Positions 9,572 through 46,903 of a DNA stretch of 64,000 nt are shown here, piece by piece (within the stretch, counting starts at the first letter, position 1; every line of letters starts with the position of its first letter). The notes below the pieces were generated by a model. The model saw nothing but the letters and a program-made list of their open reading frames with translations, was not told the DNA's origin and searched no databases. The stretch lies in assembly GCA_015069095.1 (NCBI GenBank), contig SVJH01000006.1, positions 1 to 64,000 of the forward strand. The letters run 5' to 3'. Both the position numbers and the translations under genes were made by a program. The stretch comes from Oscillospiraceae bacterium (lineage in GTDB: Bacteria; Bacillota; Clostridia; UMGS1810).

Positions 9572-9603
9572 AAAAAAGAGAACGATTATACGTTCTCTTT
9601 TTT
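9572..9603. terminator. bidirectional terminator
   Basis: Perfect arms AAAAAAGAGAACG and CGTTCTCTTTTTT around a 6-nt loop. It serves the metallophosphoesterase (plus) and overlaps the stop codon of the activase gene (minus). Confidence 0.88.
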
Positions 9604-12501: not shown

Positions 12502-12523
12502 ATTAGCACCTTCCTTCAATTAC

Positions 12524-12604: not shown

Positions 12605-12633
12605 TTGAATTTATTTGTCGATTGCTGTATAAT
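12605..12633 (+). promoter_or_regulatory. promoter for AraC regulator
   Basis: TTGAAT, 17-nt spacer and a perfect TATAAT. The predicted transcript start near 12640 fits the GTG start at 12658. Confidence 0.7.
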
Positions 12634-12657
12634 ATACTTGTGAAGGAAGTGGTTTTT

Positions 12658-14940: not shown

Positions 14941-14952
14941 GGAAAAGATATT

Positions 14953-14993
14953 AAATAAGGCTCACATACAAAAATGTGAGTCTTATTTTTTTA
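14953..14993 (+). terminator. terminator after CDF gene
   Basis: 15-bp stem (AAATAAGGCTCACAT with ATGTGAGTCTTATTT, one G-U pair), loop ACAAAA, then a T-run. Confidence 0.82.
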
Positions 14994-15061
14994 ATTTTTA
15001 TTATATTTTAATTTTTCCTGTGCATAATAATGTTGAATTTATCTTTGAAAGGAAGAATTTT

Positions 15062-16399: not shown

Positions 16400-16422
16400 A
16401 TTTTACAGAAAGGCGTGTATAA

Positions 16423-19559: not shown

Positions 19560-19568
19560 GGAGGAATT

Positions 19569-30100: not shown

Positions 30101-31085
30101 AGAAAACTCAGCAGAAGGTGCTAAAGAAAATGAATTCTACAAATCACTTGAAGCTGAACCAAAAGTTGGCAGCACACCAGCAAAGAATGTTTACTATTCT
30201 GGCGGAACCAATAAAACTCTATATAAAGGCAAGAACACAGGACTTCAGACAGAAGAAAACTGGATGATGTCAAATTCAGCAGTTGTATTTGAAATACCTG
30301 AAAGATCAGAATATGATGATGACATTGCTTACTATAGTGTAGGTACTTCATCAAAAATTCCTACTGATGAAAATGGTACTCAACGTTTTACAGGATATTC
30401 ACTTTGCGGTGATGACAGAATTATTGATGTTGTTGTAAGAAAAGGCGGCGATGGAATTTCTAATTCTTCTGACCAGATGGTTGTTAACGAAGTTATGAAC
30501 GGAATTAACGACGAAGAAGAAGATATTCTTATTGTTACAGGTCTTGTAAATGGTCAAGAAAAAACAATTGAAATTGTTGATAACAGAACAAATAAAACAA
30601 ATTACGTTTTAACACCTGGTGATATTATTGCATACACAACTGATGCTACTGGCAAGACTACATTTACAGGAAGCGGTTATTCTTGTACATATGTTGTTAT
30701 GTATTCTGATTATATTCCTTCAAACAATAAGGAGTTTGGTCAGTTCAAAACAACTTCTACAAGTTATAACTATAGCGTAACAACACGTGGTAGAACAGTA
30801 AGAACATATGGTATTCCATATAAATTTGAAGATGGTATTTTACAGTTTGCACCATATAATATGACAACAAAACCTGTTGGTACAAATCTTCCTGAAGATC
30901 CAAATCTTCATTTAATAAAACCAGAAGTTTTCAAAAATGTCTATGTATTTGATACAGCGACAAATAAATTCAGAGTTGGTACTGTTGATGAAATCTTGTG
31001 TGCATCGCAAGATTCGAACACATACACACCGGTTTATATGTATGGTTACGAAAACTCATTTAAAACAATGGTTATTTATAAATAA
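27180..31085 (+). CDS. SLH-domain surface protein with two carbohydrate-binding-like modules and a large beta-rich body
   Basis: 1301 residues. Signal peptide (~1-28). Two related beta modules (~34-200 and ~233-385) are separated by a Pro/Ala/Thr linker (~202-232); both resemble the module at ~856-1018 of the preceding SLH protein. SLH-type repeats lie at ~399-557 (FSDVGADNPYSGCIQALADV; GYPQGYLSTAARVGL). Residues ~600-1301 form a long beta-rich region with no family I recognise, but homologous to those at 36910 and 44318: shared patches are IIYNGMYKTF, FLDSDCDGIYE, LKEWDILSV and VRGTVTGY. Ends in KTMVIYK. RBS GGAAGG precedes ATG. Function unknown; wall-bound surface layer or scaffold role inferred. 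Confidence 0.85.
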   Translation: MKKLIALILSLTMVLSMMIVPTASVFAADTVVKKVDFNDLNAGSLDAFKKTLVAGGTYDMNGLTLESSIKYGNSGSSIKMSGVTKPDHRIKFTGLLGKDTLTAADKGKKYTVSAYVYSPTATTIFMGLFGATGTANAFAPTADSKTEIPANTWTLVQLGIEINDEMITNNTTQIGFEQKGTKSLSDTIYIDEIVVTEGSLPAAAPSTPAAPSTPATPQAPVTPSAPAVSTPGITSITFDDWTSIDQSKFMAGGAYSLSGLSVSNQYDHTSGKGNSLCIGNRSGSGRLKFVDIFNADGIGTTYDISAWVYTPKAASVMVGVYSTQGTDYATAPLKSSGKVSVSANTWTQITFKYTHENELITQLGIEPNVDTTYVDDIVIMPEGMELPSEEELAMAKFPEELRGYVKLFNSLGMLDKFLAVFDENATMKRDVFASVLADFLPNHVPSAMNTRFSDVGADNPYSGCIQALADVGALKGDDTGKFNPSNDVASEEAVAALLSFLGYDVYADGNGGYPQGYLSTAARVGLTDNVAITVGKPITHSELLKMMYNFIKIDVLEETQFGDVTKYATVEGRTVLAKNFDIYYDEGKVYANAITMLSSASGAGADRIQIEDTVLKTEEDVNDLLGYYVEYFYKQNKNGVNELLYVAPYEGFNDTITVSPEDFSNESNDTRWYYYDAETGNKKGIKLHGSQNIIYNGMYKTFDIDLLDIEEGNVKFLDSDCDGIYETIFVNDIYYIVVSSVDKTNEVIYDKYDPTKKIDFDSEDKDNPVRIFSTSGKEISIDSLKEWDILSVKKSETGSTVIDIVMTRKTVRGTVTGYTKDDDGKIDTIKIKDKHYKVSKTFQDMFTEYDDGGNIILKPELNQNVVLYLGNLDTVVTYETDTKLAGTIGYLIDINVPDSSSERMQMTILDQNKKTQVLTVAERIFENNSNTSINYKTFKSKDTFYDHTTYEPKRQILMFAVNGDNEINKIWYYTENSAEGAKENEFYKSLEAEPKVGSTPAKNVYYSGGTNKTLYKGKNTGLQTEENWMMSNSAVVFEIPERSEYDDDIAYYSVGTSSKIPTDENGTQRFTGYSLCGDDRIIDVVVRKGGDGISNSSDQMVVNEVMNGINDEEEDILIVTGLVNGQEKTIEIVDNRTNKTNYVLTPGDIIAYTTDATGKTTFTGSGYSCTYVVMYSDYIPSNNKEFGQFKTTSTSYNYSVTTRGRTVRTYGIPYKFEDGILQFAPYNMTTKPVGTNLPEDPNLHLIKPEVFKNVYVFDTATNKFRVGTVDEILCASQDSNTYTPVYMYGYENSFKTMVIYK

Positions 31086-31497: not shown

Positions 31498-33216
31498 ATG
31501 AAACTTTCAAGTAAAAAACGTTCAATTGCAGCGTTAGCTCTTGCAACTGCTATGCTTCTTACAGCTTGTGGCGGTGGTAGCAATGGTGTTGACCAGAAAA
31601 CAATTGAAAAAAATGATGCAAAAATTGCAGACGCAGTTAAAAACAAACAGTATCCGTTCGTACCAAAAGGTGAAAAAATTTCACTTGAACTTGGCGTTGG
31701 TGCAAGTGCCAATGTAACAAACTGGGATACAAACAGATATTCATTGTTCCTTGAAGAAAGAACAGGCCTTGATCTTAAATTTAAAGTTTATCAGGGACTT
31801 GGCGATGCTTTAAAAATCGCTTTCGCAGCAGATGACGACTCTATTCCTGACCTTATTATGAACTGGAACGTAGAAGATACTTTCTTGGTTCAGTACGGTG
31901 AAGAAGGCGAAGGCATGTTCGTTGATTTAACAAAATATATGGACGAATATGGCCACAACTTAAAACATGCTATAGAATATGCAAAAAATTATAAAGTTGA
32001 AGACAGACGAGTTGATATTGAAAAATGGCTTGTTTCTGCTGACGGACATAAATACTTTATGCCTTACATAGTACAGCAGGAAGGTAACGTTTACTCAGGT
32101 AAAGCTTATATCAACAAAGTATGGCTTGATAAATTAGGTCTTGAAGTTCCTACAACAACAGAAGAATTAAGAACAGTTCTTAAAGCTTTTGTTACTAAAG
32201 ACCCTAATGGAAATGGTAAAAAAGACGAACTTGGTATCACAGGTGCTAAAGGTTTATACCGTGGAACACCTTGGATGTTCCTTATGAACTCATTTATTTT
32301 TGAAGACCAGGGTAAACATTATGTAGTTGACCAGAACACAGGAAAACTTTCACTTGCTTACACACGTCCTGAATTTAAAGAAGGTCTTAAATACATTAAC
32401 TCTCTTGTAAAAGAAGGTTTGTATGATGTTGAATCATTCTCTCAGGACTCAACAGCTTTAAAAACAATTTGTTCACTTGACGATAACATCGTAGGTGTTA
32501 TTACTACAGGTTCTCCTGATGCTAACTTTGCAGCTAACCCAGAAAGAATGCTTGACTATGTTGCACTACCAAACCCAACAGGTCCTAATGGTGTTAACTG
32601 GGCATTCAGACAGGCAAGAGATGCTCGTGTAAACGGTACAATGACAAAATACTGCGAAAACAGACTTGCTGGTTTTGCTCTTATGGACTTCATGCTTAGC
32701 GAAGAAGCTTCATTATTCACAAGATACGGTGAAAAAGGTAAAGACTGGAGAGAAGCTAAAGAAGGCGATGTAGCAATGTTTGCTAATATCGGTCTTGAAG
32801 CAAGACTTGTTCCACTTATTCCTTATGGTCAGCCAACAGATGCTCACTGGCAGGCAGCATCACCTCAGTTCAGATTCCCTGAAATTGCTGATGGTATGGC
32901 TATAGCTGCTGAAAAAGTAGGTCAGGTTGACGGTGAAAAAGTTAAAGCTGATGCTATCACAGCATACTATGGAAAAGCTCCTAAGAAAATTGTAGAAAAA
33001 CAGTTGTTTACATTAGAAGAAAGTGAAGAATTCGCTGACTTAAATACACAGATTACTGCATGTGTAACACCAACAATCGCTGCATTTATCACTGGTGAAA
33101 AAGACATTGATAAAGAATGGGATGCATTCCAGGCAGAACTTAAAAAACTTGGTGTTGATAGATACTTAGAACTTTCTCAGGCTGGTTATGACAGATTTGA
33201 AAAAGGCGGTAAATAA
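31498..33216 (+). CDS. ABC transporter sugar-binding lipoprotein (LplA-like)
   Basis: 572 residues. Lipoprotein signal with lipobox LLTACGGG (Cys near residue 24), then an extended family 1 solute-binding protein of the LplA type (NVTNWDTNRYSLFLEERTGL; PDLIMNWNVED; DPNGNGKKDELGITG calcium-loop-like insert). Such proteins serve CUT1 importers for complex oligosaccharides such as xylan, pectin or mannan fragments; the ligand is not fixed by sequence. The gene uses more C-ending codons (AAC, TAC, ATC, GAC) than its neighbours, as expected for a highly expressed protein. RBS GAGGAGAG. A hairpin, not a terminator, separates it from the permeases. Confidence 0.92.
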   Translation: MKLSSKKRSIAALALATAMLLTACGGGSNGVDQKTIEKNDAKIADAVKNKQYPFVPKGEKISLELGVGASANVTNWDTNRYSLFLEERTGLDLKFKVYQGLGDALKIAFAADDDSIPDLIMNWNVEDTFLVQYGEEGEGMFVDLTKYMDEYGHNLKHAIEYAKNYKVEDRRVDIEKWLVSADGHKYFMPYIVQQEGNVYSGKAYINKVWLDKLGLEVPTTTEELRTVLKAFVTKDPNGNGKKDELGITGAKGLYRGTPWMFLMNSFIFEDQGKHYVVDQNTGKLSLAYTRPEFKEGLKYINSLVKEGLYDVESFSQDSTALKTICSLDDNIVGVITTGSPDANFAANPERMLDYVALPNPTGPNGVNWAFRQARDARVNGTMTKYCENRLAGFALMDFMLSEEASLFTRYGEKGKDWREAKEGDVAMFANIGLEARLVPLIPYGQPTDAHWQAASPQFRFPEIADGMAIAAEKVGQVDGEKVKADAITAYYGKAPKKIVEKQLFTLEESEEFADLNTQITACVTPTIAAFITGEKDIDKEWDAFQAELKKLGVDRYLELSQAGYDRFEKGGK

Positions 33217-33301: not shown

Positions 33302-34300
33302 ATGAGCACAGAAAAAGTTAAAACACAAAAAACAAATACTAAAACAAAAGCTCCAAAAAATGATATAAAATTGCAGAATAATTTTAAAAACATTAAAGCT
33401 GCATGGCAGCTTTATGTGCTTCTATTATTGCCAGTAATCTATATTATTATATTTGCATACGTACCTATGTATGGTGTTCAGATTGCGTTTAAAGATTTCA
33501 GACCTTCTAAAGGTATAGCAGGAAGTGCTTGGGCCGATCAAGGTTTGTTTGAGCATTTTAAGATTTTGACAAACGCAAAATTTAAAGATGCTTTTGTTAA
33601 TACCATTGTTGTTTCTGTATATACATTAATTGCAGGTTTCCCAATTCCAATTTTACTTGCATTATCGCTTAATGTAATGAGAAACAAAGTGTTCAAAAAA
33701 ACAGTACAGATGGTATCTTACTTACCACACTTTATTTCAACTGTTGTTATGGTAAGTATTTTAACTCAGTTTTTTAATACAAAAGTTGGTCTTTTTGGAC
33801 AGATTTTAAAAACTCTTGTTCCTGGCGCTACATATACAGTCAGCCCAATGGGCAGTGCAAATGCATTCCCACATTTATATGTTTGGTCTGGTGTATGGCA
33901 GAATATGGGTTGGTCTACAATCATTTATTTGGCTGCATTGGCAAGTATTGATATGGAACAGACAGAAGCTGCTATGATTGATGGCGCTACAAGATTCCAG
34001 CGTGTAATACATATTGATATTCCAGCAATTTTACCTACTGCTATAATTCTTTTAATTATGGATGCTGGTAAAATTATGAGTGTTGGTTTTGAAAAAGCCT
34101 TTTTGATGCAGAATGATACTAACCTTAATGCCAGTGAAATCATTTCAACATATTCTTATAAACGTGGTTTCATTGATACGGGTTTAAATAACTTTTCACA
34201 GGCGGCTGCCATTGGCTTGTTTAACTCTGTAATCAATTTGATATTGGTTGTAACAGTTAATAAGATTTCAAGAAAAGTTAGTGATACAAGTTTATGGTAA
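33302..34300 (+). CDS. ABC oligosaccharide transporter permease (LplB-like)
   Basis: 332 residues. Charged N-terminal tail, then six membrane segments of the LplB permease type: PMYGVQIAFKDFRPSKGI is the typical first loop and TEAAMIDGATRFQRVIHIDIPAI the EAA loop. Ends in TVNKISRKVSDTSLW, typical of LplB. GGAG precedes the ATG at a rather long distance. Partner permease starts 15 bp after its stop. Confidence 0.94.
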   Translation: MSTEKVKTQKTNTKTKAPKNDIKLQNNFKNIKAAWQLYVLLLLPVIYIIIFAYVPMYGVQIAFKDFRPSKGIAGSAWADQGLFEHFKILTNAKFKDAFVNTIVVSVYTLIAGFPIPILLALSLNVMRNKVFKKTVQMVSYLPHFISTVVMVSILTQFFNTKVGLFGQILKTLVPGATYTVSPMGSANAFPHLYVWSGVWQNMGWSTIIYLAALASIDMEQTEAAMIDGATRFQRVIHIDIPAILPTAIILLIMDAGKIMSVGFEKAFLMQNDTNLNASEIISTYSYKRGFIDTGLNNFSQAAAIGLFNSVINLILVVTVNKISRKVSDTSLW

Positions 34301-34314
34301 GGGAGGAAGAGTAA

Positions 34315-35217
34315 TTGAAAGCAAAAAGAAATACAGCAATTTCAGTATGTACATCAGATAAAATTTTCTATGCAACTGTTAACGTGATTATGACGTTAGT
34401 ATTACTAATAGTTCTTATTCCAATGCTTAATGTTGTTGCATCATCTTTTTCATCAGGTAAAGCTGTTTCTGAGGGTAAAGTTACTCTTTGGCCTGTAAGT
34501 TTCAGTTTGGATGGTTATATTGAAGTATTTAAAAATAAAAACATATTAATTGGTTATGGTAATACGATTTTCTATACTGTAGTAGGTACAACACTTAACG
34601 TTATTATGACAGTTTTGTGTGCTTATCCTCTATCAAGAAGTGATTTACCTGGAAGAAACTTTTTAATGTTTTTATTCTCATTCACTATGTTGTTTAATGG
34701 TGGTATGATTCCTAACTTCGTTTTGATGAAAGACTTAAATCTTCTTGATTCAAGGTTGGTTTTAATCATCCCCGGCGCTATCGGCGTTTACAATATGATT
34801 ATTACAAGAACTAATTTCCAACAGTTACCAAAAGAACTTTTGGAAGCTGCTAAAATTGACGGATGTAGCGACTTTAGATTTTTCTTAACAATGGCATTGC
34901 CTTTATCTAAAGCTATTATTGCCGTTATTACATTGTTCTACGCAGTAGGTCATTGGAATGTGTTCTTTAACGCGAAACTATACTTAACAACAGAAAGCAA
35001 AATGCCTTTGCAGATTTTCTTGCAGCAGATATTGCTTGCTAACTCTTTAACAAGCGGTTCTAATATTGAACCTGAAGTTGCAGCAAAACTTGCAACAATG
35101 GCTGACCTTTTAAAATATTCGTTGATTATCGTAGCAAGTTTACCTGTATGGTGTGTATATCCGTTTATTCAGAAATACTTCGTACAAGGTGTTATGATTG
35201 GATCAATCAAAGGTTAA
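34315..35217 (+). CDS. ABC oligosaccharide transporter permease (YtcP/LplC-like)
   Basis: 300 residues, six membrane segments. Features of the YtcP/LplC group: PMLNVVASSFSSGKAV near the start, FNGGMIPNFVLMKDLNLLDS, EAA loop ELLEAAKIDGCSDFRFF, and the ending QKYFVQGVMIGSIKG. TTG start preceded by GGGAGGA. Last transporter gene; a terminator follows. As in the 15-kb operon, no ATPase is encoded. Confidence 0.94.
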   Translation: MKAKRNTAISVCTSDKIFYATVNVIMTLVLLIVLIPMLNVVASSFSSGKAVSEGKVTLWPVSFSLDGYIEVFKNKNILIGYGNTIFYTVVGTTLNVIMTVLCAYPLSRSDLPGRNFLMFLFSFTMLFNGGMIPNFVLMKDLNLLDSRLVLIIPGAIGVYNMIITRTNFQQLPKELLEAAKIDGCSDFRFFLTMALPLSKAIIAVITLFYAVGHWNVFFNAKLYLTTESKMPLQIFLQQILLANSLTSGSNIEPEVAAKLATMADLLKYSLIIVASLPVWCVYPFIQKYFVQGVMIGSIKG

Positions 35218-35247: not shown

Positions 35248-35309
35248 TTATTAAATAATATTTGTTTGGGTTGAATATTTTTAAATTATAATATAAATTG
35301 GTGGTAATA

Positions 35310-36743
35310 ATGGAAAGAAAAAGCGGAGTTTTAATGCATATTTCATCCTTGTATGGTGAATATTCTTCAGGTTCGTTTGGAGAAGAAGCAAAATGTTTTA
35401 TTGATTTTATAAAAGAATGTGGTTTTTCATATTGGCAAGTTTTGCCGTTTTGTATGGTTGATGAATGTAATTCTCCTTATAAATCGTATTCTGCATTTGG
35501 AGGCAATCCTTATTTTATTGATTTAAATACATTGTATAAAAAAGGATTACTTACAGAAAATGAACTTAATTTGCAGAAACAAGAAACTCCATACAGTTGT
35601 GAATATGTAAAATTATATCATAATCGCGTGAATTTGTTGAAAACGGCTGCAAAAAGAGTTACTGATAAAAAGGAAATTGAAGATTTTATTTCATCACATG
35701 ATGAACTTGAAAAGTTTTGTAAATTTATGGCTTTAAAAGAAAAAAATAACGAAAAACCGTGGTATGAATGGGAGAACGATAAATGCGATGACGACGTAGT
35801 TTTCTCCTGGAAATTTATTCAGTATGAATTTTTTGATCAGTGGTCAAAAATAAAGAAATATGCTAATTCAAAAGGTATTAAAATCATCGGAGATATGCCT
35901 ATTTATGTTTCACATGACAGTAGTGATGTGTGGAGTAATAAAAATGAATTCCTACTTGATAAAGATGGATTGTGTACAGATGTTGCTGGTGTTCCGCCTG
36001 ATTATTTTGCTGAGGATGGACAACTTTGGGGAAATCCGCTTTATAACTGGGATGTTATGAAAGAAAATAATTATTCATGGTGGAAAAAAAGAGTTTTACA
36101 TATGCTTGAGATGTTTGACGGAATACGTATTGACCATTTTAGAGCATTTGACAGTTATTGGGCTGTCGATTCAAGTGAAACGACAGCAAAAAATGGAACT
36201 TGGAAAATAGGTCCCGGAATAGATTTTATAAATGAAATTAAAAAGATTGCTGAAGATAAACTTATTATTGCAGAGGATTTAGGTGATATAAGTGAATCTG
36301 TTGTAAAACTTGTTGATGATAGCGGATTCCCTGGAATGCGAGTTTTTCAATTTGCTTTTTTCGGAGATAGTAATTCTCCTCATTTACCGCATAATTATGT
36401 AAAAAATTGTGTAGCATATTCAGGTACTCATGATAATAATACGCTTTTGGGATATTTGTGGGAACTTGATGACAACACAAGAAAATATATGCTTGATTAT
36501 TGTGGATATACAGATTCAAATTGGGAAGCAGGGTATAATCACATTGTACGAAGTATCATGGGATCATGCGCGGATCTTGTTATTTTGCCGATTCAGGATT
36601 TGTTAGGTTACGGTTCGGATACACGTCTTAATATTCCTGGCAAAGCAGATGGCAACTGGAGATTTAGAATTACTAAAGAACAATTAAATTCGATTGATAA
36701 AGATAGATTTTTGCACTATAATAAGTTGTATTCAAGATGCTAA
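35310..36743 (+). CDS. malQ: 4-alpha-glucanotransferase (GH77), copy 2
   Basis: 477 residues. Same enzyme family as the gene at 18087 and clearly paralogous (shared KKYANSKGIKIIGD, GQLWGNPLYNW, IRIDHFRAFDS, LIIAEDLG, GTHDNNT). Cytoplasmic maltodextrin disproportionation is expected. ATG at 35310 follows GGTGG; the in-frame TTG at 35298 would overlap that site. It stands alone between two terminators; TATAAT at 35287 could be its -10, but I find no good -35. Why two copies exist is unclear; different chain-length preference is possible. Confidence 0.93.
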   Translation: MERKSGVLMHISSLYGEYSSGSFGEEAKCFIDFIKECGFSYWQVLPFCMVDECNSPYKSYSAFGGNPYFIDLNTLYKKGLLTENELNLQKQETPYSCEYVKLYHNRVNLLKTAAKRVTDKKEIEDFISSHDELEKFCKFMALKEKNNEKPWYEWENDKCDDDVVFSWKFIQYEFFDQWSKIKKYANSKGIKIIGDMPIYVSHDSSDVWSNKNEFLLDKDGLCTDVAGVPPDYFAEDGQLWGNPLYNWDVMKENNYSWWKKRVLHMLEMFDGIRIDHFRAFDSYWAVDSSETTAKNGTWKIGPGIDFINEIKKIAEDKLIIAEDLGDISESVVKLVDDSGFPGMRVFQFAFFGDSNSPHLPHNYVKNCVAYSGTHDNNTLLGYLWELDDNTRKYMLDYCGYTDSNWEAGYNHIVRSIMGSCADLVILPIQDLLGYGSDTRLNIPGKADGNWRFRITKEQLNSIDKDRFLHYNKLYSRC

Positions 36744-36909: not shown

Positions 36910-39891
36910 ATGAGAATTTTTAAAAAATTAACATCTATAGTACTTATTGTAGCGTTTGTTTTTTCTCTTATGCCTTTAGCAGTATTCGCAGAAGAAAAAA
37001 CAGATGTTGCAACTGACGAAACTACAACACAACCGACATCAATTTTTGCTGATGTAGATGAAAATACACAGTATAAAGATGCAATTGAAGAATTATACAA
37101 CAAAAAAATTGTTGACGGATATCTTGACGAAAATGGCGTTAGAACATTTAAACCTGACGCGACAATTACAAGAGGAGAGTTTGCAAAACTTCTTGCAGTT
37201 TCACTTCCAAGTAAAATTACACTTGATATGAATGTAAAATCATCAGGATTTTCTGATATTGATTCAGATGCTTCTGTAGCATGGACAATTCCATATGTAA
37301 AGGCAGCATTTAATGCATCTGTTGTAAATGGATATGAAGATGGTTCATTCAGAGCAAAAAATCCGGTTACATATGCAGAAGCAGTTAAAATGGTTGTATG
37401 TGCTATGGGTTATGCAGACAAAGTTGAGATAACAGATCCATGGTATACTGGTTATATCACAATTTCAGATCAGTTAAAAATTAGAATGTATGCTATGGGA
37501 AATGGAGATTTTAATGCTCCTGCTTCCAGAGGTCTTGTGGCGCAACTTATAAGTAATATGGCTTCTTCAAAATATATTATTGGGACTGTTGTTCCAGGTA
37601 TAAATGATAACACTGCCGGTAATGGTAATGGCTCAAATGTAATAGATCCATCTGATGAGGAAGAAATAGATGAAGTAAGCGGTATGATGATTGGAGCATT
37701 TGACGAAACATTAACCGGGGATACTTTAGATTTATCAAGAACTCAAGTAATGATTGATGATGAAGTGTATGAAATTGGAACTTCAAAAACAATCGACGAA
37801 ATGAAAGAACTTGTTGGCTATACAGTTGATGTTGAATATGAAAATGTTCGTTCAAAACGTGTTATTAAGAAAATTTCAAAAGGCGACGCATTAGATATTA
37901 AAATTGAAGATACAGATATCATTGATGTAGATAGTCTAACGCTTATATACGAAGACGATTCTAAAGAGAGAAAAATTAAATTCACCACTAACACATATAT
38001 TTTCTATAATGGTTCAGCAACTGGCACACTTACAAGTAATGAAATTGAAGATTTATTGTTAGGTATTGAAAATGGATATGTTGAAATAATTGATAATGAT
38101 TCTAACAAAACTGCAGATGTTGCAAGAATTTATAATTATGAAACATTCTTTGTAGGAGCAAAGGACTCAAGTTCTAATACTGTTACAGATATGTATACAG
38201 GCGAAAAAATTGTTCTTGGAGAAGCTGGCGAAGATGAAAGTGAAAATGTTGAAATTCAACTTTGCGACAATTCAGGAAAATTAAGCAAAGCTTATTTTAG
38301 TACTATTTCAAAAAATTCTGTATTGTCTGTTGCACGTCCATATGTTGAAACTCCAGATTCTGTAACTAAAGTAATAATTTCAAAAAGAACAGTTAAAGGT
38401 GATGTTACAAGAAAAGGTGAAGATTATTATACTATAGCAGGAAAACAATACAAATACACATCATATTATGAACAATTAGTTTCAATAAATCCTGATAAGA
38501 AAATAAATGCTGGTGATACAGGAACATACTATCTTGATTATACAGGCAAAATTGTTTCAACAGCACTTTCTGATACATTAAGATATGGTTATATAGTAGA
38601 TGCTGAAACCGAAGACACATCTTCTGCTGAACCTATTATAAGAATGGTAACATCTACAAGTAATAAAATTACAGATTTCACATTAAAAGATAGAGTATCT
38701 GTTAACGGCGAATCAATGACTAAGAAAAAAGTTATTGAATTTTTAGAAGAATCTGCTTCTGCTATCAATGATGGAAGTGGTAAGTATGATGCAGGTTATG
38801 CTGATGCTGCAACATATTCACAACCAATTATATTTGAAACCACATCATCAACTGGAACAGTTATTTCTTCAATTAAAACTGTTGCTCCAATAGGTGAAGA
38901 TGATTCAAACGCGTTAGAATATGACCTTGGTAAAACTTTAGATGGCGAAAAACTAACTTTCTATACAAGTGGTTACACATTTAAAGATTCATCAAATACT
39001 CGTCGTTTTTCTATGACATTTGCTTCTACATCGGATTACAGAGCAAAAATCTTCGTTGTTCCTACAGATAGAAGTGAAGAAGATGAATATGAGGTATATA
39101 CTTCTGCATCATATTTCAAAAATGGCTATAAATATGTAGTTGATGCATTTAACGTTGACCCAACTAACAGATATGGTAATATAATTGTTGTATATGGTGG
39201 TTCTCAGGTTAAAATCGATGGTTCTAATAAAGCTTGTATTATTACAAATATAGGTAGTGAATACGACGAGAAAACAATGGAAACGTATAAAACACTTTCT
39301 TATATGGAAGTTGGTGTAAAAGATCCACAAGTAAATACAGTTATTGTTGAAGATGCGTCGCTTTTAACTGGCCTTACAAATGGAGATATCATAAAAATTG
39401 CAACTAAGAATGACTTAGGCAAAGAAGCAACATTGATTGAAAAAGTTTTTGTTAACGATAAACTTTATGAACCATTTGATGAAAACTTAGATCAAGATGT
39501 TTCAACTGACTATACTTTTGTTGAAAAGTACGGTACTGATTCTGATTACTTCAATGCAATTGTAGGTAGAGTTTATTATTCAGATGAAACTGCTATTCAG
39601 CTTATTAAATGTTACGATATTCCATATGAAGAAGATGACCCTGAAGTTAACGAAATATATGAAAGTGCAGTTCCATATACTGTAAGTGGTACAGCAACAT
39701 ATGTTATGGTTGTTGACAGTTCTAAATTAACTACTGTTGATGACGTAGGAAATAACGAAGGCATTAAATATTATTTATATAATTCTGTCACACCTAATGC
39801 TATAACAGCAAATGGTCTTGGTCTCGAAGATTTTGTTTACATTCAAAGAAGTGGAACAGGCAGAATTACCGGAATTGTAATTTACAGATAA
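36910..39891 (+). CDS. SLH-domain surface protein with unknown beta-rich body
   Basis: 993 residues. Signal peptide (~1-28, ending AVFA). SLH repeats occupy ~36-190 at the N-terminus (FKPDATITRGEFAKLLAV; FSDIDSDASVAWTIPYV with YEDGSFRAKNPVTYAEAVKM). From ~255 to the end is a beta-rich region with repeated patches (VMIDDEVYEIG, LLGIENGYVEIIDNDSN, VIISKRTVKGDV, GTYYLDYTGKIV) that align with those of the proteins at 27180 and 44318. It ends GRITGIVIYR. RBS AGGAGG, own promoter and terminator. A wall-anchored surface or S-layer-like protein is the safest call; no enzymatic motif is seen. Confidence 0.85.
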   Translation: MRIFKKLTSIVLIVAFVFSLMPLAVFAEEKTDVATDETTTQPTSIFADVDENTQYKDAIEELYNKKIVDGYLDENGVRTFKPDATITRGEFAKLLAVSLPSKITLDMNVKSSGFSDIDSDASVAWTIPYVKAAFNASVVNGYEDGSFRAKNPVTYAEAVKMVVCAMGYADKVEITDPWYTGYITISDQLKIRMYAMGNGDFNAPASRGLVAQLISNMASSKYIIGTVVPGINDNTAGNGNGSNVIDPSDEEEIDEVSGMMIGAFDETLTGDTLDLSRTQVMIDDEVYEIGTSKTIDEMKELVGYTVDVEYENVRSKRVIKKISKGDALDIKIEDTDIIDVDSLTLIYEDDSKERKIKFTTNTYIFYNGSATGTLTSNEIEDLLLGIENGYVEIIDNDSNKTADVARIYNYETFFVGAKDSSSNTVTDMYTGEKIVLGEAGEDESENVEIQLCDNSGKLSKAYFSTISKNSVLSVARPYVETPDSVTKVIISKRTVKGDVTRKGEDYYTIAGKQYKYTSYYEQLVSINPDKKINAGDTGTYYLDYTGKIVSTALSDTLRYGYIVDAETEDTSSAEPIIRMVTSTSNKITDFTLKDRVSVNGESMTKKKVIEFLEESASAINDGSGKYDAGYADAATYSQPIIFETTSSTGTVISSIKTVAPIGEDDSNALEYDLGKTLDGEKLTFYTSGYTFKDSSNTRRFSMTFASTSDYRAKIFVVPTDRSEEDEYEVYTSASYFKNGYKYVVDAFNVDPTNRYGNIIVVYGGSQVKIDGSNKACIITNIGSEYDEKTMETYKTLSYMEVGVKDPQVNTVIVEDASLLTGLTNGDIIKIATKNDLGKEATLIEKVFVNDKLYEPFDENLDQDVSTDYTFVEKYGTDSDYFNAIVGRVYYSDETAIQLIKCYDIPYEEDDPEVNEIYESAVPYTVSGTATYVMVVDSSKLTTVDDVGNNEGIKYYLYNSVTPNAITANGLGLEDFVYIQRSGTGRITGIVIYR

Positions 39892-39894
39892 AAT

Positions 39895-39927
39895 AAAAAA
39901 GCAACCGAGAAATCGGTTGCTTTTTTT
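39895..39927 (+). terminator. terminator after SLH gene
   Basis: Stem AAGCAACCGA / TCGGTTGCTT with GAAA loop and seven T. Confidence 0.88.
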
Positions 39928-39928
39928 G

Positions 39929-39957
39929 TTGACTTTTACTTTGTTGTTTGATACAAT
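39929..39957 (+). promoter_or_regulatory. promoter for rhamnosidase-like operon
   Basis: TTGACT, 17-nt spacer ending in TGA (extended -10), TACAAT, starting directly after the preceding terminator. Confidence 0.7.
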
Positions 39958-39982
39958 AGCCGTATGAAAAGGAGTGAGATTT

Positions 39983-41989
39983 ATGCATGAGTTTAAAGGA
40001 AGTTGGATAACAAAAAAAGAACTTTCTAACATCAAACCGCAAAATGTGTTTCACAGACAGCTTGACACTAAAGAAATCGAAGGAAAAATACCTAAAAATC
40101 TTCATATACTTTTCAGGAATAAATTTTATGTTAAAAATGGCAATTTGGTAAAAGTATTTATATCTGCTGATGATTACTATAAACTTTATATAAATGGAAA
40201 GTTCGTTACTCAGGGACCTGCTCCTGGGTTTAATTTTCACTATTACTATAATGAGATAGACATAACAGATTTTGTAAAAGAAGGCGAAAATACGATTGCT
40301 GTTCACACTTACTACCAAGGATATATAAACAGAGTTTGGGTAAGTGGTGATGATAGATGCGGTCTTATATACGATGTTTTCGAAAATGACAAGTTAATTT
40401 TAAAAAGTGACGAAAACACAAAATGCGCCTATCACAGTGCATTTTCTGAAATGGGACATGTTGGTTACTTAACACAGTTTTTAGAAAGATATGATTCAAA
40501 TTCGCTTGAAATAGGTTTTGAAAAAGAAGATTACGATGACACAAACTGGGAAAAATGTGCTATAAATAATAATGCTGATTATGATATGTATTTGCAACCG
40601 ACAAAGCAGTTGGATATTGAAAAAATCACTCCTGTAAGTTTTACTATTAAAAACAATGTTGCAAAAATTGATTTTGGAAGCATTTATGTTGGTTATTTGT
40701 CATTAAATGCAAAAGGTAAAATAAACGAAAAAATAACTGTCAGATGCGGCCAGGAACTAAATGAAGATAGTAGTGTTAGATACGAGTTGCGTGCCAATTG
40801 CAAGTATGAAGAAGAGTGGATTCTATCCGGCAAAAAGGATACACTAAATCAGTTTGATTACAAGTCGTTTAGATATGTTGAACTTTTATTGCCCGATAAA
40901 TGTGAAATTGATGATATTTATCTTATTTCAAGACATTATCCATTTGAATGTAATAAAACGTGTAAATATGACGATGAAGAACTTTTAAAAATATGGAATT
41001 TGTGCATAAATTCATTGAAATATGGAGTTCAGGATATAATTCAGGATTGCATGGAACGTGAAAAAGGCCAGTATCTTGGAGATGGATGTTTGAGTTCAAC
41101 AGCGCTTAGTATTGTTACAAACGATACAAAAATGATGGAAAAAATGATTGATGATGCCCTTAGAACCTCGTTTATAAATGAAGGCCTTGTTACATGCTCT
41201 CCGTGTTCATTTATGCAGGAAATTGCTGAGTATCCGTTAATGCTTCCGCTTGCATTTCTTTGTCATTATAAACTGACAGGAAACAAAGAATTTATTAAAG
41301 AAAGATTTGATAAATTAAAATCAATTTTAGATTTTTATAAAAATAATTATGCCGACGAAAGTGGAATGCTTAAAGATTTAGATAAATGGTGTGTTGTTGA
41401 CTGGCCAAAAGAGTGTCGCGATGGTTATGATTTTGAACTTCCAAACCCTGGTATTGCTTATGGTGTTCACAATGTCATCAATGCTTACTATATTGGAGCA
41501 ATTAAGATAGTAAATGTGCTATCTAAGATAATTGGATATGATGATTATGCTGATGATGACATACTTCAAAAAAGATTTATTGAAGTTTTTTATGATGAAA
41601 ATAAAAAAATGTTTACTGATTCGTCTGTTTCAGAGCATATTAGCCTTCCTGCAAATGCATTTGCACTCATGTACAATTTGTGTCCTGATAAAGAAACAGA
41701 AGAGAATATTGTTGACATGATTATGACAAAAGATGCATCGCTTAGTGCGTTTTTTACATCATTTGCATCACTTTGTGCACTTAAAAGATTAAATAAAGAC
41801 GATTTAGTTAAAGAATTTATAAAAAACAAAGGCAGATGGCTTCGAATGATAAGAGAAGGTGCTACTGTAACATTTGAAGCATGGGGAAAAGACGGTAAAT
41901 GGAATACATCACTTTTCCATTTATGTTATACATTTGCGATTTTGTTTTTAACAGACTGGGGATTTGAAGATATATTAAAGGAGATATAA
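39983..41989 (+). CDS. alpha-L-rhamnosidase-like glycoside hydrolase (GH78-type)
   Basis: About 669 residues. An N-terminal beta-sandwich (FISADDYYKLYINGKFV; TYYQGYINRVW) and a jelly-roll are followed by an (alpha/alpha)6 barrel from ~330. The DCMEREKGQYLGDG stretch corresponds to the catalytic acid region of GH78 enzymes (DCPQRDER...GD), and the late EAWGKDGKWNTSLFH matches the conserved ESWG...NTS region. Distant from classical rhamnosidases, so the exact sugar is unsure. No signal peptide, so probably cytoplasmic and acting on imported oligosaccharides. ATG at 39983 follows AAGGAG. Followed after 1 bp by an SGNH hydrolase gene. Confidence 0.78.
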   Translation: MHEFKGSWITKKELSNIKPQNVFHRQLDTKEIEGKIPKNLHILFRNKFYVKNGNLVKVFISADDYYKLYINGKFVTQGPAPGFNFHYYYNEIDITDFVKEGENTIAVHTYYQGYINRVWVSGDDRCGLIYDVFENDKLILKSDENTKCAYHSAFSEMGHVGYLTQFLERYDSNSLEIGFEKEDYDDTNWEKCAINNNADYDMYLQPTKQLDIEKITPVSFTIKNNVAKIDFGSIYVGYLSLNAKGKINEKITVRCGQELNEDSSVRYELRANCKYEEEWILSGKKDTLNQFDYKSFRYVELLLPDKCEIDDIYLISRHYPFECNKTCKYDDEELLKIWNLCINSLKYGVQDIIQDCMEREKGQYLGDGCLSSTALSIVTNDTKMMEKMIDDALRTSFINEGLVTCSPCSFMQEIAEYPLMLPLAFLCHYKLTGNKEFIKERFDKLKSILDFYKNNYADESGMLKDLDKWCVVDWPKECRDGYDFELPNPGIAYGVHNVINAYYIGAIKIVNVLSKIIGYDDYADDDILQKRFIEVFYDENKKMFTDSSVSEHISLPANAFALMYNLCPDKETEENIVDMIMTKDASLSAFFTSFASLCALKRLNKDDLVKEFIKNKGRWLRMIREGATVTFEAWGKDGKWNTSLFHLCYTFAILFLTDWGFEDILKEI

Positions 41990-41990
41990 A

Positions 41991-42710
41991 ATGAGAATCA
42001 TAGAAAAACTTAACGAAAAAAATAATAATTTACATTCAATAAGACAACCTTTAATTGCGTTTTTAGGAGACAGCGTTACACAAGGATGCTACGAATTATA
42101 TGTAAAAGATGGAAAGGTTGACACTGTTTTTGATTCTAATAATAATTACAGTACAAAACTTAAAGAGATTCTTCTTACATTTTTTCCGTCGTCATCACTT
42201 AATATAATAAATGCAGGTATAAGTGGAGATAGAGCTGAAGTTGGATTAAGAAGATTAGAGCGTGATGTGCTAAGTTATAATCCAGATTTAGTTGTAGTTT
42301 GCTACGGGCTTAACGATGCTACAAGAAAAGAAGCAGAGTATGAATTATATTTGAATTCTCTAAAGAGCATTTTTGAAAAAGTAAAAGAAACAGGCGCAGA
42401 AATTATATTTATGACACCAAATTTATGGACAGATAAAATTGATGATTCAATAACCGATAATTTAATATATGATGCTGTAAAAAAAGTAGCTGATTGTGAA
42501 AAAGAAGGATGGCTTAAAAAATACATAACTTCTGCAAAAGAACTTTGTGATAAAATGGACATTCCTGTATGTGATTGCTACAAAATATGGGAAACGTTTA
42601 AAAGGGGAGGGGTAGATGTAAATCTTCTTCTTTCTAATAAAGCAAATCATCCAACACGTGATATGCATTATCTTTTTGCATACGAACTTGTAAAAACTAT
42701 GTTTAATTAA
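41991..42710 (+). CDS. SGNH/GDSL-family hydrolase (probable carbohydrate esterase)
   Basis: 239 residues with the SGNH blocks: FLGDSVTQG (nucleophile Ser), NAGISGDRAEVGL (Gly), VVCYGLNDATR (Asn) and a C-terminal KANHPTRDMH in which His-Pro fits the catalytic His. The usual Asp three residues before the His is an Asn or Lys here. Related proteins deacetylate plant or wall polysaccharides. No signal peptide, so cytoplasmic. AAGGAG precedes ATG. Tightly coupled to the rhamnosidase-like gene, suggesting removal of acetyl groups from the same imported oligosaccharide. Confidence 0.83.
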   Translation: MRIIEKLNEKNNNLHSIRQPLIAFLGDSVTQGCYELYVKDGKVDTVFDSNNNYSTKLKEILLTFFPSSSLNIINAGISGDRAEVGLRRLERDVLSYNPDLVVVCYGLNDATRKEAEYELYLNSLKSIFEKVKETGAEIIFMTPNLWTDKIDDSITDNLIYDAVKKVADCEKEGWLKKYITSAKELCDKMDIPVCDCYKIWETFKRGGVDVNLLLSNKANHPTRDMHYLFAYELVKTMFN

Positions 42711-42718
42711 GGTGAAAT

Positions 42719-43198
42719 ATGAAAATATACTATTATACAAAAGAAAAAAAATATAAATCTAAAGATACTGATGAGTACATAAAAAAAAGCGTATATGATT
42801 ACACAAAGAAAGATAATATTGCTGTATACAGAACAAAAGAAGGAAAACCATACGTTGATGATGTTTTTGTAAGCGTAACCCACACGGATTACTTTCTTGT
42901 AATTTGTGTTTCGGATTCAGAAGTCGGAATTGATGCAGAAAAGAAAAACAGAAAAGTAATGTTTAAATCGAGAATTATTAAAAAGTACTTTTCCAAAAAA
43001 GAAAAAGAGTATACTTTAAATTCTGATATTGGATTTTTGGAAGTGTGGGTAAAAAAAGAAGCGTATTTAAAATTTTTAGGAACCGGTCTTAAAGATATAA
43101 AAAATGCAGATACGTTTAACTTAAACGGGAAGTTTACAAAAATAGACCATAAAGATTTAATAATATATATTTATACAGAAGAAAACTCCTCATTATAA
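42719..43198 (+). CDS. 4'-phosphopantetheinyl transferase (Sfp type, short)
   Basis: 159 residues. Transfers the phosphopantetheine arm from CoA to carrier proteins. Motifs: VSVTHTDYFLVICVSD, the Mg-binding EVGIDAE and the signature WVKKEAYLKFLGTGL. It is shorter than Sfp (~225), lacking much of the N-terminal half. No carrier-protein or synthase gene is near. The start lies 8 bp after the SGNH hydrolase stop, so it is probably in the same transcript, but a functional link with sugar enzymes is not evident. Confidence 0.87.
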   Translation: MKIYYYTKEKKYKSKDTDEYIKKSVYDYTKKDNIAVYRTKEGKPYVDDVFVSVTHTDYFLVICVSDSEVGIDAEKKNRKVMFKSRIIKKYFSKKEKEYTLNSDIGFLEVWVKKEAYLKFLGTGLKDIKNADTFNLNGKFTKIDHKDLIIYIYTEENSSL

Positions 43199-43213
43199 AT
43201 GAGGAGTTTTTAA
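43182..43213. terminator. bidirectional terminator
   Basis: Arms AAAACTCCTCATT and AATGAGGAGTTTT between the convergent phosphopantetheinyl transferase and deacetylase genes. Confidence 0.85.
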
Positions 43214-43215
43214 TT

Positions 43216-44070
43216 TTACGAAATTTTAATTGTTTCACCTGGTTTAATTTCATATATATTGTCGTAATCGTAAGAAAACCAGAGTGTTGTAGCGGTAGGA
43301 TTGTGTACGTATTCCATATCTACACTGTATTGAAGCTGCTTAAAAGCACTCACATAATCAAATATTTCAATGTTTGTTGCATACCAAATATCATCTCTAT
43401 TTGCGATTTTTGATAAGATTTTTTCCATTTGATCCCAGTTATTGTTTTCGTCAAATTCGTATGAATGACCATATACGTAGAACAGAGACGGAAAACGCTT
43501 AGTTTTAATATTTAAAAATTCTTCAATTAAATCAAAAATCTTTGGATCGTTGTGATGACAAGTTGGTTGGTAATGAAGTAATCCTGTCATAGGCAAATTA
43601 AATGAATGAGTTGGAGTTGAACCTCTTGAATAAGCAATTCCTGAAACTTCACATGCTTTTATTACATCATCATCAACTGCCCAAGATCCATTCGGATATG
43701 CCATACCACGAATAATTCTGCCAAATATTTTTTCTAAGTTGTTTCTGTCCTCAATAATTTCTCTTGCCACTGTTGCCTGAGGAATTGCAATAAGGGAAGG
43801 GTGGGAAGCTGTATGAACAGCGATTTCGTGTTCTGTACCGTCAAAAAGTTCTTTTAATTCTTTTGAACTAAGGCGTTTTCTATGAGAAGGGTTTGCGATA
43901 CCTTTATCGACGTTAATAATTCTTTGACTGTTTAAGTTGAAAGTTCCTTTAACATTGTATTTGTTAAACATCTCAACAAGTGGCTTGTCAAACTCAGTAC
44001 CATCATCATAGCTTAAAGTAAATGCTTTTTTGCGTCCGTTTGGATATCTAAGAAATATATCATGTACCAT
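43216..44070 (-). CDS. polysaccharide deacetylase (NodB-homology, CE4-like)
   Basis: 284 residues. NodB motifs are complete: TLSYDDGTE (catalytic base and metal Asp), HTASH (metal His pair), MAYPNGSW and FYVYGHSYEFD near the C-end of the domain. A small ~60-residue domain follows (WFSYDYDNIYEIKPGETI). It hydrolyses N- or O-acetyl groups from a polysaccharide in known relatives. No signal peptide or membrane anchor is seen, which argues for an imported or intracellular substrate. Own promoter; divergent from the SLH gene at 44318. Confidence 0.88.
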   Translation of the reverse strand: MVHDIFLRYPNGRKKAFTLSYDDGTEFDKPLVEMFNKYNVKGTFNLNSQRIINVDKGIANPSHRKRLSSKELKELFDGTEHEIAVHTASHPSLIAIPQATVAREIIEDRNNLEKIFGRIIRGMAYPNGSWAVDDDVIKACEVSGIAYSRGSTPTHSFNLPMTGLLHYQPTCHHNDPKIFDLIEEFLNIKTKRFPSLFYVYGHSYEFDENNNWDQMEKILSKIANRDDIWYATNIEIFDYVSAFKQLQYSVDMEYVHNPTATTLWFSYDYDNIYEIKPGETIKIS

Positions 44071-44107
44071 AAAAACACTCCTTATACTTTTAAAAAATTA
44101 TACAGAT

Positions 44108-44136
44108 ATTTTAACACCAATTTTTGGTATTGTCAA
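44108..44136 (-). promoter_or_regulatory. promoter for polysaccharide deacetylase with palindrome in the spacer
   Basis: Minus strand TTGACA, 17-nt spacer ending in TGT (extended -10), TAAAAT. The spacer contains the inverted repeat ACCAATTTTTGGT (44116-44128), a possible operator. Confidence 0.72.
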
Positions 44137-44223
44137 TAAACGAGGAACAAATAAAAACTTTCTTCGTCTATATTACTGTAAATGCGTTATATAAAAATGA
44201 TTTTAATTACCATATTTTGATAC

Positions 44224-44252
44224 TTGATATCTTTTTGTATATACGTTATTAT
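44224..44252 (+). promoter_or_regulatory. promoter for SLH protein at 44318
   Basis: TTGATA, 17-nt spacer, TATTAT. The rest of the 247-bp gap 44071-44317 holds the divergent deacetylase promoter and plain AT-rich leader. Confidence 0.5.
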
Positions 44253-44317
44253 ATAGACATAGGTTGACATAAATAAACTTATGGAAACTAAATTCAAATC
44301 TCGAGGAGGAGTAAATT

Positions 44318-46903
44318 ATGTTTAAAAGATTATTGAGTGCTATTCTTTCAGTAGCAATGATAATCTCTGCAATGACAGCTGGTGTATTTGCTGCAATTCC
44401 TACAGATGTAATTGACACTAAATATGAAGAAGCAGCTCAAGTTTTGGGCGTACTTGACATAATGGTTGGCGATAAAGATACTGGACTATTCAGACCTGAA
44501 GATACAATAATTCGTTCAGAAGCAGCAAGAGTTGCAATATCTGCTTTAGGACTTCAGGATGTAGCAACATCTACAAATGGTCCTACAAGATACCCTGATG
44601 TATCAAAAGATCACTGGGCAAATGGATATATTAACGTTGCAACTACTCAAGGATTAGTTATTGGCGATGATTTAGGCAATTTCAGACCTGATTCAAATAT
44701 CACTTATGCTGAAATGGTAACAATTCTTATTAGAGCATTAGGATACGAACCAATGGCAAAAAGTAAAGGTTCATACCCACAAGGGTACCTTGTGGCAGCA
44801 TCTAACATTGGTCTTACAAAAGGTATTGGCGGAAATGCTAATGAAGGTATCAAAAGAGGAGATGTTGCACGTCTTGTAAACAATGCTTTAACTATTAAAC
44901 TTATGGAACAAGTAGGTTTTGGTACTGATGTTAAATATGAAATTGTTGATAAAACTCTTTTAAAAGATAACCTTGATGTTGAAAAAATTACAGGTCAGGT
45001 AACTGCAGTAAAATCTTCAGCACTAAATGGTGACAGTAACTTAAGAGAAGATCAAGTTCAGATTGAAGATAAAATATATTTAATCGGCGATGCTGATGTA
45101 AGAGAAATCTTAGGTTTTACAGTTGATGCATATATTAAAGAAGATACAAGAACAGGCGAAAAAACACTTCTTACAGCAATTCCTGTTGAAGGTCTTAACA
45201 AATCTATAAAAATTGATTCAGATAGCATAGAAGAAATTGTTAATGAAGAAAATGACAAGCATATTAAGTACTGGATTGATAAAGATAATGATCGTTCTCC
45301 TAAAAAGTTAAAAATTGACAAAGATGCAAAAATTATGTATAACGGAAAAACGGGTTCATTTGAAGACTTCAAAACTATTGAATCAGGTTACTTTACAGTT
45401 CTTGATTCTGATACAAACGGTTCGTACGATGTAGTTTTTGTTAATGAAACAGTTAACTATGTAGTAGAAGAAGTTATAGTAAATACAAACAAAATTATCG
45501 ATAAATATGGTCAGAAAACATTAGTGCTTGACCCTGAAGATACTGACTTAATTTTCTCAATAGAAAAAGGTACTCAGCTTATTGGTATTAAGGACTTAAA
45601 AGAATGGGATGTACTAACTGTAACACAGAGTAAAGACGGAGATTTTATTCACATTGAAGTGAGCAATGAATCAGTAAGCGGTAAAGTTACAGAAATAGAT
45701 GACGAAAAAGTTTATATAAACGGCACAGGTTATCTTGTAGCAAGTAACTACGAAGAAACAATTAACCTAAACGATGAAGGTAATTTCTATCTTGATGTAT
45801 TTGGTAAAATTGCAGGTGTTGACGCAAAAGGAACAATCAGCACAAACTATGCTTACCTTAACAAAATTGAATTATCAAATGGTTTAAATAAAGTTATAGA
45901 ACTTGAAATATTTGATAAAAACGGAAAAGTGTTGGTAGAAAAAACTGCTTCAAAAGTTAAAGTTAATGGTGGAAACTATGTAACATGCGAAGAAGCAATT
46001 TCTTTAATCGGCGATGCAGGACAACTTATCACATTTGAAAGAAATTCTGATGGTCAGATTAACAGAATTTATACTGCAAATAACACATCTGGTGCGATTG
46101 ATGAAGAAAACTTCTCTAAAAACCTTGTACTTTCTGATGCACAGTATAATGCAAATACAAATAAACTTTACGCATCAGGTAAAGGTGTTGTTGTAACAGA
46201 AGATACTTTAGTATTTGATATTCCTGCAGGAGAAACTGATGCAAGTGAATTTTCAATAAGAAATATGGACTTCTTTATTGACGACGATAAATACGATATA
46301 ATAGTATTTGATATGCAGCGTGATTTAACAGCCAAAGCAATAATTGTAACAAAATCAACTGGTGATGCAAATGAAGCATCTTCAATAGCGGTAGTCGATA
46401 GAATTACAAAAACACAGAACGAAGATGGCGTTGAAATTGAAAAATTATATGCAATTCAAAATGGTAAGCCGGTAACATTTGTTACAAGTGAATCAGGCAT
46501 ATTAGTAAAATCTAACGGCGAATCAAATGTTTCTTTAAGCCAGGGCGATATAATCCAGTTCAGAGTAAATGCACAAGGTCAGATTGAAAAAGTAAATGTA
46601 CTTTTTGATATATCAACAAAAGATACAGAAAAAGAAAATGTAATATCAGAGGATCTTGCAACGTACTATGGTAAAGTTACAGATAAATTCTCGAAAACAT
46701 TTAATTTAAAAATCAATGATGGCGAAGAAATGAACTTTAATTACACTCAGGCTGATGTTTATATTGTTGACTTGAGCAAAAACAATAACAGAATTACTGT
46801 TGGAGATAGCGGAGATATCCAAAAATATGATGACTTAGATCCTGAAAGAGTTTTTGTAAGAGTGTACAAAGACATTGTTGAAGAAATTGTTATCATAAGA
46901 TAA
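44318..46903 (+). CDS. SLH-domain surface protein with unknown beta-rich body
   Basis: 861 residues. Signal peptide (~1-26, ending GVFA). SLH repeats at ~28-195 (LFRPEDTIIRSEAARVAI; YPDVSKDHWANGYINVA; NFRPDSNITYAEMVTILI). From ~225 it carries the same beta-rich body as the proteins at 27180 and 36910: VQIEDKIYLIG, IMYNGKTGSF, VLDSDTNGSYDVVFVN, LKEWDVLTV, VSGKVTEI, GNFYLDVFGKIAG. Ends VEEIVIIR. RBS GGAGGAG. Simplest member of the family and so the best reference for its core. Wall-bound, function unknown. Confidence 0.85.
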   Translation: MFKRLLSAILSVAMIISAMTAGVFAAIPTDVIDTKYEEAAQVLGVLDIMVGDKDTGLFRPEDTIIRSEAARVAISALGLQDVATSTNGPTRYPDVSKDHWANGYINVATTQGLVIGDDLGNFRPDSNITYAEMVTILIRALGYEPMAKSKGSYPQGYLVAASNIGLTKGIGGNANEGIKRGDVARLVNNALTIKLMEQVGFGTDVKYEIVDKTLLKDNLDVEKITGQVTAVKSSALNGDSNLREDQVQIEDKIYLIGDADVREILGFTVDAYIKEDTRTGEKTLLTAIPVEGLNKSIKIDSDSIEEIVNEENDKHIKYWIDKDNDRSPKKLKIDKDAKIMYNGKTGSFEDFKTIESGYFTVLDSDTNGSYDVVFVNETVNYVVEEVIVNTNKIIDKYGQKTLVLDPEDTDLIFSIEKGTQLIGIKDLKEWDVLTVTQSKDGDFIHIEVSNESVSGKVTEIDDEKVYINGTGYLVASNYEETINLNDEGNFYLDVFGKIAGVDAKGTISTNYAYLNKIELSNGLNKVIELEIFDKNGKVLVEKTASKVKVNGGNYVTCEEAISLIGDAGQLITFERNSDGQINRIYTANNTSGAIDEENFSKNLVLSDAQYNANTNKLYASGKGVVVTEDTLVFDIPAGETDASEFSIRNMDFFIDDDKYDIIVFDMQRDLTAKAIIVTKSTGDANEASSIAVVDRITKTQNEDGVEIEKLYAIQNGKPVTFVTSESGILVKSNGESNVSLSQGDIIQFRVNAQGQIEKVNVLFDISTKDTEKENVISEDLATYYGKVTDKFSKTFNLKINDGEEMNFNYTQADVYIVDLSKNNNRITVGDSGDIQKYDDLDPERVFVRVYKDIVEEIVIIR

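What the first reader, a model, noticed from the sequence alone, without database searches (positions are those of the whole stretch)
36910..46903. Uncharacterised three-member SLH surface-protein family with a shared beta-rich body
Three proteins (27180-31085, 36910-39891, 44318-46903) share a plan: signal peptide, SLH repeats in the N-terminal half, then 640-740 residues of beta-rich sequence with matching patches in the same order. Examples are YNGK/YNGMYKTF, VLDSDTNGSYD/FLDSDCDGIYE, LKEWDVLTV/LKEWDILSV, VSGKV/VRGTV/VKGDV, and a GNFYLD/GTYYLD strand. I recognise no Pfam family for the body. Finding three diverged copies within 20 kb, interleaved with sugar importers, suggests a dedicated surface layer or glycan scaffold.
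Basis: partly seen in the sequence, partly recalled or inferred. Interest (0 to 1): 0.72.

Follow-up and report, generated by a model that had tools for sequence, protein, structure and literature searches.

The report
Expanded bacterial surface-coat protein family
Three big proteins in this gut-bacterium window belong to a large, undescribed family of cell-wall-anchored surface proteins built as strings of small beta-barrels; one is a single-copy core protein across many related gut bacteria, while dozens of others sit in two-gene surface modules beside a second wall-anchored protein, sometimes with sugar importers and glycan-degrading enzymes.

Summary
The three ORFs exist; their 638-738-residue bodies are homologous and colinear (alignment z-scores 12, 13 and 36), and no Pfam, NCBIfam or PDB sequence match covers the body. 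"Three-member family" is wrong: this genome has at least four members, and expanded relatives have roughly 30-40.

AlphaFold predicts a three-SLH anchor plus an all-beta string of small OB/SH3-like beads, one weakly resembling the four-fold assembly domain of the Viridibacillus arvi S-layer (Z 7.1).

Members differ in role. P0003 (44318-46903) is a core protein, one well-supported clade found in 80 public Clostridia records. A fourth paralog outside the window has the strongest codon bias and is the best candidate for the bulk S-layer protein. P0001 (27180-31085) belongs to a two-gene module: of 59 paralogs surveyed in three expanded genomes, 48 lie directly beside a second SLH protein on the same strand (typical gap 0-60 bp); in one genome importers and lyases are also enriched. 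In the window the partner is 22031-27106, and an importer follows.

Best reading (inferred, untested): S-layer-type coat proteins, with accessory copies deployed beside lectin-like partners in glycan loci. New variant of a known kind.

The parts
44318..46903 (+). P0003, core member: signal peptide, SLH trimer, beta-bead body
   Evidence: orthologs in 80 public records; AF2 model pLDDT 87.3
44414..44971 (+). SLH trimer of P0003 (residues 33-218)
   Evidence: VIA-align Z about 20 to SpaA-SLH; Pfam SLH
44987..46900 (+). body of P0003 (residues 224-861), string of small beta-barrels
   Evidence: no Pfam, NCBIfam or PDB sequence match
27180..31085 (+). P0001, accessory member: CBM_4_9-like region, degenerate SLH region, body
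28932..31082 (+). body of P0001
36910..39891 (+). P0002, divergent member: SLH trimer and body
   Evidence: SLH residues 44-224 Z 20 to Sap-SLH
37675..39888 (+). body of P0002 (residues 256-993)
22031..27106 (+). module partner of P0001: large secreted protein with C-terminal SLH x3
   Evidence: Pfam SLH x3; same-strand neighbour, gap about 75 bp
26567..27103 (+). C-terminal SLH trimer of the partner
26039..26455 (+). helical module of the partner, second copy (first copy 24101-24559)
   Evidence: shared with partners of paralogs in other genomes
31498..33216 (+). extracellular solute-binding protein of the importer after P0001
   Evidence: weak DUF3502 only in Pfam; lipoprotein start, homologs beside permeases in G001 and G008
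33302..34300 (+). ABC permease
   Evidence: homologs carry BPD_transp_1; conserved order
34315..35217 (+). ABC permease
   Evidence: homologs carry BPD_transp_1; conserved order
35298..36743 (+). GH77 4-alpha-glucanotransferase upstream of P0002
   Evidence: Pfam E 7.5e-150; pair with P0002 conserved in G001, G003, G008

Best explanation
These are S-layer-type surface-coat proteins. Each is secreted, held to the wall by an N-terminal SLH trimer that binds a pyruvylated wall polymer, and carries a non-enzymatic string of small OB/SH3-like beta-barrels that probably packs laterally into the protein coat. One paralog (contig C30, outside the window) is probably the bulk coat; P0003 is a conserved core component. 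The many accessory paralogs, including P0001, are made as two-gene modules with a second SLH protein carrying lectin-, Ig- or CBM-like domains, in some loci together with an ABC importer and polysaccharide-degrading enzymes, so that a locus-specific coat element displays a glycan-binding partner. Shown: homology, architecture, predicted fold, core/paralog split, gene pairing, codon bias, importer enrichment in one genome. Inferred: wall-polymer binding, lattice formation, cooperation within the pair, identity of the bulk S-layer protein.
For: SLH fold Z about 20 and bead-string body; one bead resembles the V. arvi S-layer assembly domain 9fs9 (PMC11410804); beads-on-a-string is typical of known S-layer proteins (PMC12175726); PF04230 pyruvyl transferase present; codon bias of all members, strongest in C30; core clade in 80 records; 48 of 59 paralogs next to a same-strand SLH partner versus 3 of 80 core genes; partner domains F5/8C, Ig-like, CBM; permeases, PL8, heparinase, AXE1 and GH2 near G043 paralogs; conserved order in G001 and G008.
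Against: The 9fs9 match (Z 7.1) is within the range of common arrangements; no lattice was modelled. P0001 has a degenerate SLH region. Importers are rare near paralogs in G025 and G041 (2 and 1 of 20 loci). Co-evolution of body and partner is weak (r 0.13). The expression argument rests on codon usage alone.
Confidence: 0.55

Rival explanations
1. The accessory bodies are themselves glycan-capture proteins: their barrels bind oligosaccharides and pass them to the neighbouring importer, and no lattice is formed.
For: Importers, lyases and esterases are enriched near G043 paralogs; OB-like folds can bind oligosaccharides (general knowledge); P0001 carries CBM_4_9-like domains.
Against: The core gene P0003 has no importer nearby in any of 80 loci, nor do most paralogs in two genomes; lectin-like domains are mostly in the partner, not the body.
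Confidence: 0.2
2. P0003 itself is the bulk S-layer protein and the C30 paralog is an accessory.
For: Orthologs across many genomes and well conserved; codon bias clearly above typical genes.
Against: C30 has stronger codon bias than ribosomal proteins and relatives in most family genomes that diverge faster, as bulk S-layer proteins usually do.
Confidence: 0.15
3. The proteins are generic wall-associated spacers or adhesins with no common role; gene pairing reflects only that SLH genes cluster.
For: SLH proteins are very diverse, and paralog sequences are highly divergent.
Against: Pairing is immediate, same-strand and with gaps near zero in 48 of 59 cases, against 3 of 80 for core genes and 6 SLH ORFs among 217 control ORFs.
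Confidence: 0.1

Closest known systems
SLH-anchored S-layer proteins (B. anthracis Sap/EA1, Geobacillus SbsB, V. arvi Slp1)
   Same: Signal peptide, SLH trimer, beads-on-a-string all-beta region; one bead resembles the V. arvi four-fold assembly domain
   Different: No sequence similarity in the body; OB/SH3-like rather than Ig-like beads; tens of paralogs per genome
Gram-positive polysaccharide utilisation loci (gpPULs) and SLH enzymes next to ABC importers (Paenibacillus JDR-2; Roseburia/Eubacterium)
   Same: Glycan ABC importer, regulator and CAZymes with surface-anchored proteins (PMC4765114 and PMC5320581, seen by title and abstract)
   Different: Here a non-enzymatic body protein paired with a second SLH protein recurs in module after module; not described there as far as I could see
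SusC/SusD of Bacteroidota
   Same: Only the genomic logic: an adjacent pair of surface proteins in many divergent copies, some linked to glycan degradation and uptake
   Different: SusC/D sit in an outer membrane with a TonB-dependent transporter; no sequence relation was seen; not a member

Membership tests
SLH-anchored surface proteins | three SLH motifs folding as a trimer | tested here: met
   P0003 and P0002: Z about 20 to solved SLH trimers; P0001 degenerate, below Pfam cut-off
SLH-anchored surface proteins | pyruvylated wall polymer as ligand (CsaB-type enzyme in the genome) | tested here: inconclusive
   one PF04230 pyruvyl transferase, fused to a glycosyltransferase; binding not tested
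S-layer protein | self-assembly into a two-dimensional lattice | not testable with these tools
   only a weak fold match to an assembly domain
S-layer protein | very high expression | tested here: inconclusive
   codon bias elevated for all members, above ribosomal proteins only for C30
Known body domain in Pfam or NCBIfam | match over curated cut-off | tested here: not met
   body of 44 further members also without a common Pfam match
SusC/SusD system | TonB-dependent outer-membrane transporter with SusD lipoprotein | tested here: not met
   no such Pfam domain in the window proteins or partners scanned
gpPUL | ABC importer plus CAZymes plus regulator in one locus | tested here: inconclusive
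   met for the window locus in part (importer, GH77, GH78 nearby) and enriched in G043, rare in G025 and G041

The most novel reading that the evidence does not exclude
The body protein and its SLH partner form an obligate two-protein surface complex, one per locus, that captures polysaccharide through a locus-specific patch of the S-layer and feeds uptake systems: a wall-anchored functional counterpart of SusC/D in gut Clostridia.
Probability: 0.22. Interest if true: 0.8.

Novelty: new variant of a known kind. Interest (0 to 1): 0.6.

Why it matters
Monoglobus-like gut Clostridia include fibre specialists, but how they hold polysaccharides at their surface is little known. If the pairing is functional, it gives a genomic handle (body plus SLH partner) for finding glycan-capture modules in uncultured Clostridia, and a way to ask whether an S-layer can be assembled from substrate-specific parts. 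The core gene and the C30 paralog are concrete candidates for the coat itself.

Tried and rejected
Profile self-comparison of P0003 for internal repeats found only the SLH repeat, and HHalign between bead segments reached at most 50% probability, so common descent of the beads is not claimed. A PDB sequence search with the body profile found nothing credible. Long Foldseek hits (DDB1 and other propellers) have TM about 0.1 and were discarded as all-beta noise. Weak LptF/LptG, LysM_OapA and FlgA hits are far below cut-offs. Recent tandem duplication of the three genes was rejected by the tree. A Mantel test for co-evolution of body and partner gave only weak correlation (r 0.13, p about 0.02): suggested, not shown. 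Literature: no description found for Monoglobus SLH proteins in the open library; the main genome paper is not held. The P0002 model (pLDDT 68) was used only for its SLH fold and one bead.

Full report
OBSERVATION. Bodies of 713, 738 and 638 residues align in the same order; local alignment scores lie 12, 13 and 36 standard deviations above shuffles. Pfam, NCBIfam and PDB sequence searches find SLH domains, and CBM_4_9 in P0001, but nothing credible on the body. The SLH of P0001 is degenerate but aligns with that of P0003.

FAMILY SIZE. A body profile finds a fourth member in the same genome (contig C30, 1003 aa, E 5.9e-51). Of 392 genomes of the class, 90 have the body. Full scans of three relatives give 47, 41 and 27 matching stretches (some genes are split in two), and a one-contig genome gives 5. 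P0001 and P0002 were part of the profile, so their profile E-values are not independent; the pairwise scores are.

CORE VERSUS PARALOGS. P0003 has a near-full-length ortholog in 80 public records at 35-67% identity, among them Monoglobus, Ructibacterium gallinarum and Acetivibrio sp. MSJd-27 (the list was cut at 80). In a tree of 89 bodies the 27 core rows form one clade (SH-aLRT 100). P0001, P0002, the C30 protein and the paralogs of three genomes fall in scattered deep lineages, many weakly supported (quick tree). The window therefore holds three old lineages, not a recent triplication.

STRUCTURE. The AlphaFold model of P0003 (72-sequence alignment) has mean pLDDT 87.3; pTM is 0.55, so the relative placement of beads is uncertain. 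Residues 33-218 match SpaA-SLH and Sap-SLH at Z about 20. The rest is all-beta, with small barrels near 220-293, 376-451, 505-586, 683-768 and 770-860 that match OB-, SH3- or cold-shock-like domains at Z 5-7. Bead 376-451 matches 9fs9, the V. arvi S-layer domain that makes the four-fold axis (Z 7.1, 68 of 82 residues, 2.4 A; PMC11410804). At this Z it is suggestive only. P0002 (pLDDT 67.8) shows the same SLH fold and an OB-like bead at 762-850, aligned with the P0003 bead 683-768; its alignment was made mostly of P0003 orthologs, so this is not fully independent.

EXPRESSION PROXY. With one cluster of ribosomal-protein genes as reference and correction for amino-acid make-up, the C30 paralog exceeds ribosomal proteins per codon (0.284 against 0.237). 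P0001, P0003 and P0002 are at 0.188, 0.187 and 0.160; most other window genes are near zero, while the solute-binding protein at 31498 is at 0.287. C30 is therefore the best candidate for the bulk coat. A PF04230 pyruvyl transferase, of the kind that makes the usual SLH ligand, is present.

LOCUS. In the window the order is 22031 (C-terminal SLH protein), P0001, solute-binding protein, permease, permease, GH77, P0002. In G001 it is GH77, P0002 ortholog, SLH/CBM protein, P0001-like, solute-binding protein, two permeases. In G008 it is solute-binding protein, two permeases, one unassigned ORF, SLH protein, P0001-like. The GH77-P0002 pair also occurs in G003 and G008. The N-terminal region of P0001 resembles that of GH30 and GH10 enzymes of the same genome.

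TWO-GENE MODULES. Twenty paralog loci were fetched from each of three expanded genomes (59 bodies detected). Forty-eight bodies have another SLH protein as immediate same-strand neighbour (18/20, 17/19, 13/20), with typical gaps of 0-60 bp; for the core gene it is 3 of 80 (Fisher p 7e-23), and in 20 arbitrary 16-kb stretches of G043 only 6 of 217 ORFs have SLH. The loci were chosen from the best-scoring paralogs, not at random. The partner usually ends in SLH x3 after a glycine-rich linker; among 23 scanned, 9 carry F5/8C and others Ig-like, CBM_X2, CBM_4_9 or GDSL domains. About half of the SLH neighbours (33 of 68) share a helical module, of which 22031-27106 has two copies.

GLYCAN LINK. 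Around G043 paralogs, 16 of 86 nearby proteins carry BPD_transp_1, and there are solute-binding proteins, polysaccharide lyase 8, heparinase II/III, AXE1 and GH2; controls show at most one permease. 'At most 1 of 83' is a bound, because the tally lists only the 25 commonest families. In G025 and G041 permeases are rare in the fetched stretches (2 and 1 of 20 loci). Pairing is general; the importer link is not. Neighbouring ORFs were called mechanically.

READING. The simplest account is a family of wall-anchored coat proteins with one core copy, one probable bulk copy and many accessory copies paired with lectin-like SLH proteins, some in glycan-uptake loci. Everything beyond genes, predicted folds and gene order is inference.

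Noticed in passing
L073:3787-5568:-, L092:3390-5240:-, L095:3763-5655:-, L103:3559-5448:-; own genome L170:3698-5542:+: In 33 of 80 core loci a related SLH protein of about 600 aa, with several tandem beta repeats, lies within the fetched stretch, mostly divergently oriented next to the core gene; the own-genome homolog is elsewhere (beside tsaD) and has strong codon bias.
   Followed up: partly
window 24101-24559 and 26039-26455; L225, L227, L230, L233 partners: A helical module of about 150 residues recurs in SLH partner proteins and is not named by Pfam.
   Followed up: partly
window 14924-21812: A second importer set (solute-binding protein, two permeases) followed by a GH77-like gene and glycogen phosphorylase, the make-up of a maltodextrin locus.
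   Followed up: no
window 9602-12519: Glycyl-radical enzyme with a radical-SAM protein beside it, next to an AraC-type regulator at 12622-13443.
   Followed up: no
window 48563-49255; L056:10710-11456:+; L073:1756-2481:-: A sigma-70-family factor lies within a few kb of the core gene in the window and in some other core loci.
   Followed up: no
window 43216-44070; L048:4920-5795:-: A polysaccharide deacetylase gene lies divergently next to the core gene in the window and in L048.
   Followed up: no
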